Below are positions 57,060 through 62,928 of a stretch of DNA of 64,000 nucleotides, piece by piece. The first letter of the stretch is position 1. Each line of letters starts with the position of its first letter. The notes under the pieces were generated by a model, which had not been told where the DNA came from, ran no database searches, and saw only the letters and a program-made list of their open reading frames with translations. The position numbers and the translations under genes are program-made. Origin of the DNA: Rhizobium sp. BT03 (lineage in GTDB: Bacteria > Pseudomonadota > Alphaproteobacteria > Rhizobiales > Rhizobiaceae); assembly GCF_030053155.1 (NCBI RefSeq), contig NZ_CP125640.1, positions 4,190,001-4,254,000 of the forward strand. Reading direction: 5' to 3'.

Positions 57060-57074
57060 GGATAGTGTATATCC
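57060..57074. promoter_or_regulatory. Predicted Rrf2 operator (autoregulation site)
   Basis: GGATA-GTGTA-TATCC inverted repeat, 40 bases upstream of the Rrf2 ATG. The same GGATA-N5-TATCC pattern occurs twice at 60970-61003, upstream of the AhpD-like operon. Confidence 0.62.
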
Positions 57075-57114
57075 TTAATTCCGTTCGCAGAACCAGTATC
57101 ACGCGAGTTGCTGA

Positions 57115-57603
57115 ATGATCCTGAAAAGCCAGGTCGAGTGGGCGCTCCATTGTTGCGCCATTCTCGCGGGCCTGCCCGAGGGCAGGTATCTCTCCACCAA
57201 GGCGCTCGCCGAGCTTCATGGACTGCCGAAGGAATATCTTTCCAAGGCGCTGCAGAGCCTGTCGCAGGCATCGCTGGTCGATACCACGCTCGGCCCGAGC
57301 GGCGGTTACAGACTTGCCAGACCCTCGTCCGAGATCAATTTCCTCGACATCGTCGAGGCGGTCGAGGGCAAGGCGCGCAGCTTCACCTGCACGAACATCC
57401 GTGAGAACAATCCCTGCCGGCCGGCCGGCTATTGCGACAGCAAGCCCTGCGCGGTCGCCCGCGTCATGTGGGAAGCCGACGAGGCCTGGCGCAATACGCT
57501 GCGGCGCGTTCGCCTCTCCGATCTGGTCGGCACCCTGTCCGAGGAGGTTCCGCCCGATATCTGGCGGGACACGTTTGAATGGGTGCTGAAGCGCGCCGGC
57601 TGA
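57115..57603 (+). CDS. Rrf2 family transcriptional regulator
   Basis: A 162-residue Rrf2 protein. The winged helix has MILKSQVEWALHCCAILAGL, LSTKALAELHGLPKEYLSKA and GPSGGYRLARPSSEINFLDI. The region after it carries four cysteines, Cys92, Cys101, Cys107 and Cys112 (in TCTNIRENNPCRPAGYCDSK plus PC), consistent with a metal, Fe-S or thiol switch as in IscR/NsrR, though the spacing differs from IscR. It likely represses itself and the AhpD-like operon through GGATA-N5-TATCC sites. No good ribosome site; start is by homology. Confidence 0.9.
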   Translation: MILKSQVEWALHCCAILAGLPEGRYLSTKALAELHGLPKEYLSKALQSLSQASLVDTTLGPSGGYRLARPSSEINFLDIVEAVEGKARSFTCTNIRENNPCRPAGYCDSKPCAVARVMWEADEAWRNTLRRVRLSDLVGTLSEEVPPDIWRDTFEWVLKRAG

Positions 57604-57616
57604 GAGGTGCGAAATC

Positions 57617-59098
57617 CTACGCCCTGAAAATGGTCCTGATGGTCTTCAGGATGGCATGGGCGCTGCGGATCTGTTCCGGGGGCAGGGCGGCGCCGTCGCG
57701 GAAGCGTTCGGCGCGGCCGGCGAGATGTTCGGCGATTTCTTCGGCGAGCGCCGGGCGTTCGGAAAGCAGCGGTGCGAAGGCTTCCTGGTCGATTTCATAG
57801 GCCGTCACCGGCGTCAGCGCTTCAAGGGTGCAGACTTCCTGCATGCCGGCGAGCAGGCCGGTCTCGCCGAAGAAATCGCCGGGCGCCAGCCGTCCGCGTT
57901 CCTCGTCCGCATGCCGGGCGGCGATGATGCCGGCGCGCACCATCATCAGCGAGGGCAGCATTTCGCCCTCGCGCACGATGATATCGCCTTTGCGGAACTG
58001 CCGGGCAGCGGTGGTTTCGGCGAGCTTTGCCTTTTCCTCCGCCGTCAGCGTCGCAAAGACCGGAATGGCTTCGATCAGGGCAAGCGGCGTCACGCGCGGC
58101 GGCTGGGCGTTTTCCTCGGTCGGCAGGTCGGCGGCAAGGATCCTGGCCGAGGGCGGAACGGCGATCAGCAGGCCGGCGGATTTGCAGTGGCGATAGACGA
58201 GATCGAGCACCTCGTTTCGCGCCGGCACACGCTGGCTGGGGCTCGTCACCCGGAATTGCAGCTCGACTTCGAGCGCGGTGGCATCAAGCCCTTTCAGGGC
58301 GACCACCGGCGGCGGGTCGCGCACGATCGAATTGCAGCTCGTCAGCGCGGTCAGCATGACCTGGCGGATCGAGGCCGGCATGCGCGTCGGGGCGATGCGG
58401 ATGGTGAGGATCAGCAGATGGGTCTCGTCCGGCCGGCTGACATTGGTCAGGCCGAGCTTGGCGAGAAAGCTGTTCGGCAGCACGACGATATTGTTGCCGG
58501 GGGTCAGGATGTGCGTTGCGCGCCAGTTGCTCTCGACGACGCGCCCTTCCGTGCCGTCGCTCAAAAGGATCCAGTCGCCGATGACATAGGGCCGGCCGAG
58601 GGTCAGCGCGATGCCGGAGAAGACGTCGGCGAGCGTGTTCTGCAGCGCGAGACCGAGAATGATGGCGACGACGCCCGATGTGGCGACTAGGGTTCCGATC
58701 GGCACGCCGAAGACGAAGGCGAGGATCGAAAGCATCATGCCGATATAGACGATGCCGATGACGAGATCCTGGAGCAGGCGGGCCTCGCGCGGGCTGCCCT
58801 CCAGCACCAGGTAGAGCCTGATGAAGCCGATGACGGCCCATGCCAGGTGAACCCACCAGAGCGATTTGGCGAGGATGACGAGCAGGGCCTGAGGGTCCTG
58901 CGTCTCATATCCCTGGAAGCGGTGGGGTTCGATGCCGCTGCCGACGAGGATCAGCGTCATCACGGCAAAGAAGAGGATCTGCACCACCAGCCGCGTCGTC
59001 GGGCGCTGGCTGGAGAGGAAGTACCAGACGACGATGCCGGCGAAGCCAACCGTGATGAGCGATATCAGAGGCTTGCCGAAGAGCGCGTCGTAGATCAT
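57617..59098 (-). CDS. Mechanosensitive channel MscS family with cyclic-nucleotide-binding domain
   Basis: A 493-residue inner-membrane channel. Four membrane helices in the first 180 residues, the pore-lining one being GTLVATSGVVAIILGLALQN then TLADVFSGIALTLGRPYVIG. The MscS beta domain follows (WILLSDGTEGRVVESNWRAT). The C-terminal cNMP-binding fold is ATLTAEEKAKLAETTAARQF, IIVREGEMLPSLMMVRAGII and LAPGDFFGETGLLAGMQEVC. In related bCNG channels, cyclic nucleotides rather than tension gate the pore. The window also encodes a class III cyclase. Confidence 0.92.
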   Translation of the reverse strand: MIYDALFGKPLISLITVGFAGIVVWYFLSSQRPTTRLVVQILFFAVMTLILVGSGIEPHRFQGYETQDPQALLVILAKSLWWVHLAWAVIGFIRLYLVLEGSPREARLLQDLVIGIVYIGMMLSILAFVFGVPIGTLVATSGVVAIILGLALQNTLADVFSGIALTLGRPYVIGDWILLSDGTEGRVVESNWRATHILTPGNNIVVLPNSFLAKLGLTNVSRPDETHLLILTIRIAPTRMPASIRQVMLTALTSCNSIVRDPPPVVALKGLDATALEVELQFRVTSPSQRVPARNEVLDLVYRHCKSAGLLIAVPPSARILAADLPTEENAQPPRVTPLALIEAIPVFATLTAEEKAKLAETTAARQFRKGDIIVREGEMLPSLMMVRAGIIAARHADEERGRLAPGDFFGETGLLAGMQEVCTLEALTPVTAYEIDQEAFAPLLSERPALAEEIAEHLAGRAERFRDGAALPPEQIRSAHAILKTIRTIFRA

Positions 59099-59194
59099 CT
59101 CACTCTTTCTCCGGGAAGGGCGGGTGGCACATGATTGAGCATGTCGGCCAGCTGCGCAAGCTTCGAGCCCGCGCGGCCGGCCTTCGGCGGATCG

Positions 59195-59611
59195 TCAGTT
59201 CTGCAGCGGGAACGTCAGCTCTTTCTGTTCGGTGTCGACGACGAAGACGGCGAGCAGGCGGGCGGGCTGCGTGTCGCTGCCATTGGCGCTGACGCCGTGG
59301 CGGTCGCCCGGCATTTCCGAGAAGCTTTCTCCGGCCTGATAGGTCTTGACCGGACCGTCATTGACCTGGCTGCGGATCGATCCCTCAAGCACGGTGGCGT
59401 AGATGAAGGCCGAGTCGGGATGGGTGTGGCCTTCGGAGAAGCCGCCGGGGCCGTATTCGACCAGCACGCCCTTGATGCTCTTGCCCGGCACGTTCGGCAG
59501 TTCGTGTTCATAGACGAGCGTCACCTTGGCGGACTTGCTGCTGTCGTGGGCTGAAACGCCGGTGGCTGCCAGAAAGGCGAGGGCGGCGGCGAGGAATGAT
59601 GACTTGATCAT
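59195..59611 (-). CDS. Periplasmic cupin-domain protein
   Basis: A 138-residue single-domain cupin with a signal peptide (MIKSSFLAAALAFLAATGVS then AHD). The metal-binding motifs are GGFSEGHTHPDSAFIYATVL and AGESFSEMPGDRHGVSAN (His, His, Glu-like, His). Start ATG at 59611 preceded by AGGAG. Third gene of the operon AhpD-like, NmrA-like, cupin (35-base gap). Substrate unknown; the family includes quercetin dioxygenase-like and regulatory proteins. Confidence 0.87.
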   Translation of the reverse strand: MIKSSFLAAALAFLAATGVSAHDSSKSAKVTLVYEHELPNVPGKSIKGVLVEYGPGGFSEGHTHPDSAFIYATVLEGSIRSQVNDGPVKTYQAGESFSEMPGDRHGVSANGSDTQPARLLAVFVVDTEQKELTFPLQN

Positions 59612-59646
59612 GGCAATCTCCTTATTGCCTGGGGTGAGAGGGGCGA

Positions 59647-60402
59647 TCATTTCGGCCGGGCGGATGTGGCGAACCACTGTTCGAAGGTGATGGAACCGAG
59701 GCGCGGATCGTCGTCGGAAACGAGCGACTGGTCGTTGAGCCTGGCGCCGAAATATCTCGCCTCGGCATCGGCCTCGACGGTCCTCGGATCTTCCATCGCC
59801 CTGAGATAGCGGGCGACGAGCTCGCTGAGGCGGACCCGTTCCGGGCCTGATATTTCGATCGTCTTGTTGGCCGGGGCCGAAAGCGCCACGTCGGCCATGG
59901 CGTCGGCGACGTCGTCGGAAGCGATCGGCTGCACATAGGCGGGCGACAGGCGAACCGTCTGGCCGACCGTGCCGGACTGGGCGATGCCGTTCAGGAATTC
60001 CATAAACTGCGTCGAATGTACGATGGTATAGGGAATGCCCGATGCCCTGATCAGCTGTTCCTGGGCGAGCTTGCCGCGGAAATAACCGCTTTCCTGCAGC
60101 CGCTCAGTGCCCACGACGGAAAGCGCGATATGGTGCTTCACGTCGGCGGCCTTTTCGGCGGCGAGAAGATTGCGCCCCGACGTCTCGAAGAATTCGAGCA
60201 CCGCCTTGTCCTCGAAGGAGGGCGAATTGGCGAGGTCGAGCACGACGTCGGCGCCCTTCAGCGCTTCTGCCAATCCTTCCCCGGTGATCGTGTTGACGCC
60301 GGAGTTCGGCGAGGCGGCGATCACTTCATGTCCGCGTTTGCGCAGGCGCTCGACAGTTTTCGAACCGATGAGGCCGGTTCCGCCGATGACGACGATTTTC
60401 AT
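59647..60402 (-). CDS. NmrA/SDR-like NAD(P)-binding protein
   Basis: A 251-residue atypical SDR: MKIVVIGGTGLIGSKTVERL with the dinucleotide-binding GGTGLIG; VVLDLANSPSFEDKAVLEFF and HHIALSVVGTERLQESGYFR follow. No canonical YxxxK is evident, so it may sense or bind NAD(P)H rather than catalyse. ATG at 60402 is the first residue of the Rossmann motif with CGGAGATCC upstream. Second gene of the operon under the predicted Rrf2 sites. Confidence 0.88.
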   Translation of the reverse strand: MKIVVIGGTGLIGSKTVERLRKRGHEVIAASPNSGVNTITGEGLAEALKGADVVLDLANSPSFEDKAVLEFFETSGRNLLAAEKAADVKHHIALSVVGTERLQESGYFRGKLAQEQLIRASGIPYTIVHSTQFMEFLNGIAQSGTVGQTVRLSPAYVQPIASDDVADAMADVALSAPANKTIEISGPERVRLSELVARYLRAMEDPRTVEADAEARYFGARLNDQSLVSDDDPRLGSITFEQWFATSARPK

Positions 60403-60470
60403 AACGGATCTCCGTTCGCTGCCGGGTTTCGGCAGTGCCAAAAGTGAATCTTCTCAATGAATTGTAATGG

Positions 60471-60950
60471 TTAGTTCAGGCCAGCCTTATCGAGGCCATA
60501 GGCCTTGTCGGCCGAACCGGGGACGGTCTTGAAGCCGACATTGACGCGGTTCCAGGCATTGATGGCCATGACGACGAAGGTCAGGTCGGAGATTTCCTTT
60601 TCGGAAAGCTGGCCGCGAACCCGTTCATAGATCTCGTCGGGAATGCCGCCTTCGGGAAGTTTCGTCAGCGCTTCGGTCCAGGCAAGGGCGGCGCGCTCGC
60701 GGGGAACGAAGAGGTTCGATTCCCGCCAGATGGCGATATGATGGAGACGCAGTTCCGTCTCGCCGTGGATCTTTGCCTGCTTCACATGCATATCCAGGCA
60801 AAAGCCGCATCCGTTGATCTGCGAAGCGCGGATTTCGATCAGGGCCTGGAGCTTCTCGTCGATCACGCTGCTGCGCAATGCCATGCTGAATTCCATGAAC
60901 TTCTTGAAAAGCTCGGGGGACTGCTGGGCGTAGTTCAATCGCTGGGTCAC
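60471..60950 (-). CDS. Carboxymuconolactone decarboxylase / AhpD-like alkylhydroperoxidase
   Basis: A 159-residue CMD-fold protein with the AhpD-type active site IRASQINGCGFCLDMHVKQA (Cys48, Cys51, His55). This motif supports peroxide reduction coupled to thiols; true decarboxylases lack the CxxC. Start: GTG at 60950, because AAGGAG lies six bases upstream; a TTG at 60965 would have no such site. First gene of the operon; two GGATA-N5-TATCC sites lie 20-53 bases upstream. Divergent from a LysR gene. Confidence 0.9.
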   Translation of the reverse strand: MTQRLNYAQQSPELFKKFMEFSMALRSSVIDEKLQALIEIRASQINGCGFCLDMHVKQAKIHGETELRLHHIAIWRESNLFVPRERAALAWTEALTKLPEGGIPDEIYERVRGQLSEKEISDLTFVVMAINAWNRVNVGFKTVPGSADKAYGLDKAGLN

Positions 60951-60969
60951 GTCTGTCTCCTTCAATTAA

Positions 60970-61003
60970 GGATATTATGTATCCTTATGGATAAAATGTA
61001 TCC
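60970..61003. promoter_or_regulatory. Two predicted Rrf2 operators upstream of AhpD-like operon
   Basis: GGATA-TTATG-TATCC at 60970-60984 and GGATA-AAATG-TATCC at 60989-61003, 19 bases centre to centre. Both match the site before the Rrf2 gene at 57060. The flanks are also alike (AATTAAGGATA and TATCCTTAATT). They could also affect the divergent LysR gene at 61082. Confidence 0.68.
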
Positions 61004-61081
61004 GTAATTGCTGGACTGTAAAGCCATTCTCGCTTAGTCTGCCCGCATAAAGCCTATGCGCAAAAGTATGAGGGGGCAGGG

Positions 61082-62042: not shown

Positions 62043-62768
62043 CTATTGCCCGACTCGCGTATCGAGTGGAGAAGCAACTTGAGCCTTGTTGCGCATCGCG
62101 GTCAGCGAGGTCAGCAGCCTGTCGCGCTCATAGCCTCTGTACCAGTCGGCGCTGTCTCGGCGCACTTCGACGGTGTCGTGCACAAGCTCGGCGGCGAATT
62201 TGCCGTCTCCGTCGAGAGTGAAAATAAACGGAATACCAGGACCGAGATGTTTGGCGGCATCCGTCAGGTCGAGCACATCCATGCCATTCGCATATTGCTG
62301 ATCGATGTGAAGCACGACGAAATTGTCCGCCACATAGGCGTTAAGCCGTTCGGCGCTTTTTGAGATATCGGAAGGCGGACGTTCGTAAAGTGTTGCGGTA
62401 TGGCTGGGTACAGGCTGGCTCGGGCTGCCAAAGCGATAGGTGAACTTATCCGTCTCGCCATGAATATAGGCGTCGAAGACGTGGCACCATATGCACCATT
62501 CAGCACCGTAGGAGACCAGCACGGTTTTGTGCTCCGCAACTGCCTTCGCCATCGCCATCCGATAAATCTCGACCTGATCAGAACACTGATCATAAAGCGT
62601 GGCACCTCCATCCCGGCACGTTTCACTTGTCTCCCTTGGAAAAGTTTCGATGGGTTTTCGCGCGAAAGAGGGTTCAGCGGCAACCAACGCAGCGGCAATC
62701 CCGATCGCGCCAACCAGGGCAGCGCACGCAAAGGCAGTCTTCTTTAGGGATATCATGCTATTCTTCAT
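62043..62768 (-). CDS. Periplasmic thioredoxin-fold protein with CxxC
   Basis: About 241 residues. A signal peptide (SLKKTAFACAALVGAIGIAA then ALVAAEPSFA) precedes a thioredoxin-like domain with the active-site type motif GAEWCIWCHVFDAYI (CIWC), YVADNFVVLHIDQQYANGMD and GIPFIFTLDGDGKFAAELVH (cis-Pro loop). Two further Cys sit before it (CRDGGATLYDQC). It resembles thioredoxin_7/DsbD-gamma-like proteins; a redox role in the envelope is inferred. The start is 62768 or 62756. Confidence 0.8.
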   Translation of the reverse strand: MKNSMISLKKTAFACAALVGAIGIAAALVAAEPSFARKPIETFPRETSETCRDGGATLYDQCSDQVEIYRMAMAKAVAEHKTVLVSYGAEWCIWCHVFDAYIHGETDKFTYRFGSPSQPVPSHTATLYERPPSDISKSAERLNAYVADNFVVLHIDQQYANGMDVLDLTDAAKHLGPGIPFIFTLDGDGKFAAELVHDTVEVRRDSADWYRGYERDRLLTSLTAMRNKAQVASPLDTRVGQ

Positions 62769-62928
62769 CACAACCGTGGGGAGATTTCTTTGCAGGATTT
62801 TGCAATGCTTGTCACTGGTGCCACCTTGGATGACGTTAATGAAGTAGGTCATTCCTCCGTCAATCCGGTCGTTCCGCGTTAGTTTCCGCCTTGCCTAACG
62901 GCTGCGAATCCTGCCAAGTCGTCCGATC

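What the first reader, a model, noticed from the sequence alone, without database searches (positions are those of the whole stretch)
57060..61003. Undescribed small Rrf2 regulon: GGATA-N5-TATCC upstream of an Rrf2 gene and twice upstream of an AhpD-like/NmrA-like/cupin operon
Three 15-bp inverted repeats with the same arms and a 5-base spacer appear at 57060-57074, 60970-60984 and 60989-61003. I noticed no others in the promoter regions I read. One precedes the four-cysteine Rrf2 regulator; the other two precede a thiol peroxidase-like gene followed by a NAD(P)-binding protein and a periplasmic cupin. Together with the adjacent CxxC thioredoxin-fold protein (62043) this looks like a redox or electrophile response unit controlled by a cysteine-bearing sensor.
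Basis: partly seen in the sequence, partly recalled or inferred. Interest (0 to 1): 0.78.

Follow-up and report, generated by a model that had tools for sequence, protein, structure and literature searches.

The report
Rhizobial RsrR-type redox repressor and operators
Three identical-armed DNA repeats in a Rhizobium chromosome are the likely binding sites of a nearby iron-sulfur redox repressor related to Streptomyces RsrR, which appears to switch only its own gene and one small detoxification-like operon.

Summary
Three exact GGATA-N5-TATCC sites lie where stated (0.026 expected in the window). The genome has 10 such sites. With extended arms, only these three fit within 2 mismatches; a fourth, at a paralogous rrf2-CMD operon, has different flanks.

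The regulator is an RsrR-type Rrf2 protein. S. venezuelae RsrR is its best match by sequence and fold, and it keeps the RsrR cluster ligands (E8, H12, C92, C112) and W9.

Ten rhizobial genomes, this one included, keep a site at rrf2; nine of them keep a 19-bp-register pair at the CMD promoter. In a sample of 151 genomes, the one with CMD but no close RsrR-type gene has no site.

Likely mechanism: the oxidised [2Fe-2S] repressor blocks both promoters; reduction or cluster loss releases them. A divergent LysR probably co-regulates. The thioredoxin-fold gene is not part of the unit.

Binding, cluster and signal are inferred. Novelty is modest: a very compact new member of the RsrR kind, with its own flanks, pairing and an extra cysteine (C101).

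The parts
57060..57074 (.). Operator O1 of rrf2: GGATAGTGTATATCC, extended TGTGGATA-N5-TATCCTTA; overlaps the predicted -10 of rrf2
   Evidence: Exact match; a site at <=1 mismatch upstream of 12 of 14 orthologous rrf2 genes, own included; alignment of 10 promoters
60970..60984 (.). Operator O2a of the CMD operon: GGATATTATGTATCC, perfect TAAGGATA-N5-TATCCTTA; about +5 to +19 of the predicted transcript
60989..61003 (.). Operator O2b: GGATAAAATGTATCC, exactly 19 bp from O2a; covers the predicted -10 of the CMD operon
57115..57603 (+). RsrR-type Rrf2 repressor, 162 aa; E8, W9, H12, C92, C112 plus C101, C107
   Evidence: Pfam Rrf2; RsrR best PDB match; fold search; ligand conservation
60471..60950 (-). 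AhpD-like carboxymuconolactone decarboxylase-family gene (GTG start at 60950 chosen by eye), first gene of the target operon
   Evidence: Pfam CMD, NCBIfam ahpD_dom; PDB relative Atu0492 2gmy
59647..60402 (-). NmrA/NAD(P)-binding gene, relative of the NmrA gene beside actinobacterial rsrR
   Evidence: a relative divergent from rsrR in 80 of 80 actinobacterial loci examined, median 44% identity
59195..59611 (-). Exported-looking cupin, third gene
   Evidence: Pfam Cupin_2; found in 7 of 9 orthologous loci (not in L044, L046); signal peptide judged by eye
60995..61023 (-). Predicted CMD promoter: -35 CTTTAC (61023-61018), 17 bp, -10 TACATT (61000-60995)
   Evidence: CTTTAC in 10 of 10 aligned promoters, 71-77 bp before the start codon
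57040..57068 (+). Predicted rrf2 promoter: TTTACA, 17 bp, TAGTGT (read by eye)
   Evidence: TTTAC ahead of the site in 8 of 10 aligned promoters, not in L046 and L047
61082..61987 (+). Divergent LysR-type regulator, probable co-regulator
   Evidence: Pfam; beside the operon in 6 of 9 orthologous loci
61046..61058 (.). CATA-N5-TATG palindrome, candidate LysR box about 64 bp upstream of the predicted CMD transcript start
   Evidence: In 6 of 7 promoters with the LysR beside them (not L048) and 0 of 3 without

Best explanation
The gene at 57115 encodes a homodimeric RsrR-type [2Fe-2S] repressor. It binds an inverted repeat TTAAGGATA-N5-TATCCTTAA that overlaps the -10 of two promoters: its own (one site) and that of the CMD-NmrA-cupin operon (two dimers side by side, 19-bp register).

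With the oxidised cluster it blocks RNA polymerase at both. When the cluster is reduced or lost, the sites are vacated and the operon is made, probably to clear reactive quinones, peroxides or related electrophiles or to restore redox balance. The divergent LysR probably acts as activator from about -64.

Shown by sequence: the sites, their conservation, their linkage to the regulator, the ligand residues, the overlap with predicted promoters. Inferred: binding, cluster type, direction of the switch, substrate, operon transcript.
For: RsrR is the top PDB match (124 bits; the best non-RsrR entry 38.5 bits) and takes the first 11 ranks of the fold search. E8, H12, C92 and C112 are identical in all 137 homologues for which a locus was returned and aligned (14 orthologues own included, 43 other Pseudomonadota, 80 actinobacterial); W9 in 14 of 14, 4 of 43 and 80 of 80. 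PMC9218516 (passages) names E8, H12, C90, C110 as the RsrR ligands and W9 as the switch.

Published EMSA probes of the nmrA-rsrR promoter hold GGATA-N5-TGTCC twice, and both sites are reported bound strongly (PMC5015018 passages). In 80 of 80 actinobacterial rsrR promoters examined (the best 80 of 410 found) a relaxed core is present, against 2 of 80 for the reversed control.

Sites at <=1 mismatch lie upstream of 12 of 14 orthologous rrf2 genes; reversed and 4- or 6-bp-spacer controls 0 of 14 each. Nine of 9 related loci have a site by the CMD gene at <=1 mismatch and 8 of 9 have the pair, each 19 bp apart.

Natural control: of 11 family genomes with the CMD orthologue (151 searched), the 10 with the regulator have sites; G027, without a close RsrR-type gene, has none. 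An NmrA relative is beside rsrR across phyla.
Against: No binding, expression or cluster data exist for this protein. Of the 43 other pseudomonadotal homologues, 13 lack a site at <=1 mismatch; nine of these 13 (L076-L084) keep the ligands but have no such site anywhere in their loci. The relaxed core used for Actinobacteria is found in only 19 of those 43 (reversed control 0 of 43). Flanking bases differ from the actinobacterial operator (TTAA against GAGT). The 137 homologues are best-scoring hits, so their ligand identity is partly a matter of selection. The co-occurrence control rests on one genome, whose NmrA-CMD order is also different. The signal is inferred from RsrR; the enzymes' substrates are unknown.
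Confidence: 0.8

Rival explanations
1. The protein works as a cysteine thiol switch (as in SifR/HypR-type Rrf2 proteins): modification or disulfide formation among C92, C101, C107, C112 releases DNA, without an Fe-S cluster.
For: Four cysteines in the loop, C101 and C107 invariant in the 120 best-listed homologues (of 1360 found); an NAD(P)H quinone reductase (YwnB) is a target of the thiol sensor SifR (PMC9218516 passages).
Against: E8, W9 and H12 have no obvious role in a thiol switch yet are invariant in the 14 orthologues; RsrR is the closest structure; the SifR operator is TGTAA-N9-TTACA, unlike this one; HypR and CymR NCBIfam cut-offs are far from met.
Confidence: 0.12
2. The cluster is not RsrR-like but a NsrR/RirA-like [4Fe-4S] held by C92, C101, C107 (C-x8-C-x5-C) and sensing iron or NO; the unit is an iron or NO response.
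For: C-x8-C-x5-C resembles the three-cysteine pattern of RirA and NsrR (spacings recalled); C101 is invariant in the 120 best-listed homologues and absent from the 120 best-listed actinobacterial ones.
Against: C112, E8 and H12 would have no clear role although invariant; RirA scores 42.9 against a cut-off of 193 and NsrR 43.5 against 182; the operator has the RsrR core.
Confidence: 0.12
3. The sites belong to the LysR regulator rather than Rrf2.
For: The pair lies between the LysR gene and the CMD operon.
Against: The pair persists in L046, L047 and L049, which have no such LysR beside it; a single site lies at rrf2, away from LysR; a separate CATA-N5-TATG palindrome goes with the LysR.
Confidence: 0.02
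4. The sites are chance palindromes.
For: Five of 10 genomic copies lie inside ORFs.
Against: Sites at rrf2 in 10 of 10 and by CMD in 10 of 10 orthologous rhizobial loci (own included) at <=1 mismatch, the pair at a fixed 19-bp register in 9 of 10, promoter placement, spacer controls at 0 of 14.
Confidence: 0.01

Closest known systems
RsrR of Streptomyces venezuelae (Sven6563) and its NmrA target sven6562
   Same: Best sequence and fold match; ligands E8, H12, two Cys and W9; operator core GGATA-N5-T(A/G)TCC; predicted autoregulation; an NmrA gene as main target; two adjacent operators
   Different: NmrA is not divergent from rrf2 but second in a CMD-NmrA-cupin operon; flanks TTAA instead of GAGT; pair register 19 instead of 27-29 bp; extra C101; two predicted promoters rather than the 117 ChIP-seq peaks reported for RsrR
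SifR/YwnA-YwnB quinone-sensing Rrf2 systems
   Same: Rrf2 repressor controlling a NAD(P)-binding reductase (PMC9218516 passages)
   Different: Thiol sensor and TGTAA-N9-TTACA operator
RirA/NsrR/IscR
   Same: Rrf2 domain; cysteines in the same loop (recalled)
   Different: Curated family cut-offs not met; RsrR far closer by sequence and fold
Atu0492, PA0269 and related CMD-family proteins (PDB 2gmy, 2o4d)
   Same: Same family as the first operon gene (134.6 and 131.9 bits)
   Different: Deposited as hypothetical proteins; their regulation was not examined here

Membership tests
RsrR | Rrf2 winged-helix domain | tested here: met
   Pfam Rrf2 111 bits, AlphaFold model and Foldseek
RsrR | Cluster ligands Glu8, His12 and two Cys 20 residues apart, and Trp9 | tested here: met
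   E8, W9, H12, C92, C112; all 14 orthologues agree
RsrR | Closest solved structure is RsrR | tested here: met
RsrR | 11-3-11 inverted-repeat operator with core GGATA-N5-T(A/G)TCC | tested here: met
   Core within one base of the published probes; outer flanks differ
RsrR | Control of an NmrA-type gene | tested here: inconclusive
   An NmrA gene lies behind the operator pair; that it is transcribed with CMD and regulated is inferred from gene order
RsrR | NmrA gene divergent from rsrR | tested here: not met
   Divergent in 80 of 80 actinobacterial loci examined, not in the window or L041-L049
RsrR | Bound [2Fe-2S] cluster with redox-dependent DNA binding | not testable with these tools
   Needs purified protein
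RirA | NCBIfam RirA equivalog cut-off | tested here: not met
   42.9 against 193 bits
NsrR | NCBIfam NsrR equivalog cut-off | tested here: not met
   43.5 against 182 bits
IscR | NCBIfam IscR equivalog cut-off | tested here: not met
   36.3 against 207.55 bits
SifR/HypR thiol sensors | TGTAA-N9-TTACA operator | tested here: not met
   The conserved operator is TTAAGGATA-N5-TATCCTTAA; HypR model 22.1 against 180 bits
AhpD | CxxC-x3-H with catalytic Glu 12 residues before the first Cys (motif recalled) | tested here: inconclusive
   CGFC-LDM-H present; position -12 is Ala, nearest Glu at -9 (sequence); domain model ahpD_dom passes its cut-off

The most novel reading that the evidence does not exclude
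The rhizobial branch is a hybrid sensor. It keeps the RsrR Glu-His-Cys2 ligand set and adds an invariant C101 that, with C92 and C107, gives a RirA/NsrR-like three-cysteine pattern in the same loop. It could therefore exchange ligands or hold either a [2Fe-2S] or a [4Fe-4S] cluster, and read redox state and iron or NO with one protein acting on just two promoters.
Probability: 0.15. Interest if true: 0.7.

Novelty: new member of a known kind. Interest (0 to 1): 0.5.

Why it matters
In S. venezuelae, RsrR occupies 117 ChIP-seq sites, yet only the divergent NmrA gene clearly changes in its absence (PMC5015018 passages), so its purpose is unclear. A rhizobial relative with three strong sites at two predicted promoters, and with an NmrA gene as the shared neighbour across phyla, isolates the core function and makes it directly testable. 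It also gives a natural series of operators: the same core, three flank types, and pair registers of 16, 19 and 27-29 bp.

Tried and rejected
Inexact motif matches in the window: at chance level. Weak genome-wide sites with 3 mismatches to the extended motif: fewer in all than in the control. Thioredoxin-fold gene as a member: no match in the 20 loci L041-L060, single copy in the genome. MscS gene between cupin and rrf2: not found in L046-L048, not core. Second NmrA-cupin pair on contig C2 (L175, 74% and 76% identity): no site at <=2 mismatches, so not in the regulon. The site upstream of the LysR-type gene in L009: left as probably unrelated; its NodD identity is my recollection, and NCBIfam gave only LysR-type models below their cut-offs. 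An alignment put no cysteine opposite C107 in actinobacterial RsrR; the larger alignment places one there in 120 of 120, so only C101 is claimed as added. C101 is not wholly private: 3 of 43 other pseudomonadotal homologues also have a cysteine there. The JACS 2020 paper on RsrR was not held. A plasmid search showed relatives on 109 plasmid records but was not taken further.

Papers: searches for Rrf2 with carboxymuconolactone decarboxylase and NmrA (none), RsrR with Rrf2, Rrf2 with carboxymuconolactone (one listing, by title unrelated), Rrf2 with AhpD, ywnA/ywnB, alkylhydroperoxidase, Rhizobium/RsrR terms, RsrR/NmrA and the motif letters (20 of 12,484 listed) showed no description of this rhizobial unit in their titles and abstract starts. 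Passages were read only in PMC5015018, PMC9338935 (one section whole), PMC9218516, PMC8204329 and PMC4344238. Most subscription papers are not held.
Full report
Observation. The three sites are exact and at the stated coordinates. Random expectation for exact matches is 0.026 in the window and 2.8 in the genome; the genome holds 10, the reversed pattern 2. Of the seven outside the window, one precedes a second rrf2-CMD pair (L002), one precedes a LysR-type gene (L009) and five lie inside long ORFs. Extended arms separate signal from chance: TAAGGATA-N5-TATCCTTA at up to 2 mismatches occurs only at the three window sites (the control is given only for up to 3 mismatches, 11 against 6), and ATCATGGATA-N5-TATCCATGAT at up to 3 mismatches only at the paralogue (control 0).

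Identity of the regulator. The Rrf2 protein (57115-57603) passes the Rrf2 superfamily model but not the equivalog cut-offs for RirA, NsrR, IscR, CymR and HypR. Its best solved relative is S. venezuelae RsrR, 124 bits; the best non-RsrR entry has 38.5 bits. An AlphaFold2 model (mean pLDDT 89.9) matches RsrR chains in the first 11 ranks. PMC9218516 (passages) states that the RsrR [2Fe-2S] cluster is held by E8, H12, C90 and C110, with W9 as the switch residue. The window protein has E8, W9, H12, C92 and C112. The four ligands are identical in all 137 homologues for which a locus was returned (14 orthologues own included, 43 other Pseudomonadota with the paralogue, 80 actinobacterial). These are the better-scoring hits, not all hits. 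W9 is kept in 14 of 14, 4 of 43 and 80 of 80. C101 is present in the 120 best-listed homologues (of 1360), absent from the 120 best-listed actinobacterial ones (of 3018) in the alignment, and present in 3 of the 43 other pseudomonadotal ones. C107 has a counterpart in Actinobacteria, although one search aligned it differently.

Identity of the operator. PMC5015018 (passages) describes an 11-3-11 inverted repeat for RsrR; its EMSA probes of the nmrA-rsrR promoter contain GGATACCCGATGTCC and GGATAGTCTGTGTCC. Upstream of 80 actinobacterial rsrR genes (the best 80 of 410 found), a relaxed core GGAY-N7-RTCC occurs in 80 of 80, 71 of them with two copies at a register of 27 (55), 28 (15) or 29 (1); the reversed control occurs in 2 of 80. 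The same relaxed core is found in 12 of 14 orthologous and only 19 of 43 other pseudomonadotal promoters (control 0 and 0). The two orthologues without a site at rrf2 (L063, L064) have a 19-bp pair in front of a CMD gene that precedes rrf2; in L063 the second copy has 2 mismatches. The flanks differ by branch: TTAA for the window type, CATGAT for the paralogue type, GAGT in Actinobacteria. Sixteen of the 56 rrf2 loci L011-L040 and L061-L086 have pairs at a 16-bp register at <=2 mismatches, none of them in the window type. Against universality, nine distant homologues (L076-L084) keep the ligands but have no site at <=1 mismatch.

The unit. In nine related genomes (L041-L049) the CMD gene sits behind the sites in 9 of 9, NmrA in 8 of 9, cupin in 7 of 9, LysR in 6 of 9. 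All nine have a site at <=1 mismatch by CMD and eight have the pair, each 19 bp apart; in L044 the second copy is degenerate. The -35 CTTTAC is present in 10 of 10 CMD promoters including the window; a -10-like hexamer 17 bp further lies inside the upstream operator copy. The rrf2 operator lies over its own predicted -10; TTTAC precedes it in 8 of 10. This placement argues for repression by blocking RNA polymerase.

Natural control. In a sample of 151 family genomes, 11 have the CMD orthologue at E <= 1e-50. Ten of them are the ten with the regulator at 73% identity or more. The eleventh, G027, keeps CMD (71%) and NmrA (68%), in another order, but has no close RsrR-type gene (best hit 36% over 90 residues, E 5.7e-10) and no site at <=2 mismatches in 3.5 kb or at <=1 in 14 kb. 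It is one case, but it is what the model predicts.

Shared neighbour. A relative of the window's NmrA protein is divergent from rsrR in 80 of 80 actinobacterial loci examined, at a median 44% identity over a median 98% of its length. The NmrA-type gene is thus the common companion of RsrR in both phyla; CMD and cupin are the rhizobial additions. The paralogue in the same genome sits before its own CMD gene with type B flanks.

LysR. A divergent LysR gene lies upstream. A CATA-N5-TATG palindrome is present in 6 of 7 promoters with the LysR beside them (not L048) and in 0 of 3 without it. Its centre is about 64 bp upstream of the predicted start, the usual place for a LysR activator site (recalled). 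The operon is probably under double control.

Mechanism. In RsrR the oxidised cluster binds DNA tightly, the reduced one weakly and the apoprotein not at all (PMC5015018 passages). By analogy the rhizobial protein represses when its cluster is present and oxidised, and releases both promoters on reduction or loss of the cluster. The products would fit a clean-up of reactive compounds: an AhpD-like protein with CxxC-x3-H, an NAD(P)-binding protein, and an exported-looking cupin. YwnB, an NAD(P)-binding target of the Rrf2 repressor SifR, is a quinone reductase (PMC9218516 passages). The true substrate is unknown.

Novelty. No paper describing this rhizobial unit appeared in the listings, but the regulator type and operator core have been known since 2016. 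I file it as a new member of a known kind, with distinctive features: two predicted promoters only, the 19-bp paired operator, its own flanks, and C101.

Noticed in passing
61046-61058: CATA-N5-TATG palindrome that goes with the divergent LysR gene across relatives; candidate LysR operator about 64 bp upstream of the predicted CMD transcript start.
   Followed up: partly
L002 1501-2519 (genome C1:2056723): Second RsrR-type rrf2 with its own operator (CATGAT-type flanks) directly followed by a CMD gene; lacks W9 and the two middle loop cysteines.
   Followed up: yes
L022, L028, L030-L037, L039, L069, L071-L074: Sixteen type B loci have paired operators with a 16-bp register, sharing an arm (<=2 mismatches).
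   Followed up: partly
L009 1501-1515 (genome C4:191571): Exact GGATA-N5-TATCC about 20 bp upstream of a LysR-type gene that looks like nodD (recalled, not confirmed).
   Followed up: partly
L175 997-2238 (genome C2): Second NmrA-cupin pair, 74-76% identical to the window's pair, without an operator at <=2 mismatches in the 3.7-kb locus.
   Followed up: yes
62043-62774: Exported-looking thioredoxin-like protein with CIWC; single copy in the genome and not found beside the unit in relatives.
   Followed up: partly
L076-L084: Distant Pseudomonadota homologues keep E8, H12 and both ligand cysteines, have Tyr instead of W9 and no such operator; a possible separate RsrR branch with another DNA site.
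   Followed up: no
PLSDB plasmid records: Relatives of the window Rrf2 lie on 109 plasmid or megaplasmid records, mostly Agrobacterium, Rhizobium and Sinorhizobium/Ensifer.
   Followed up: no
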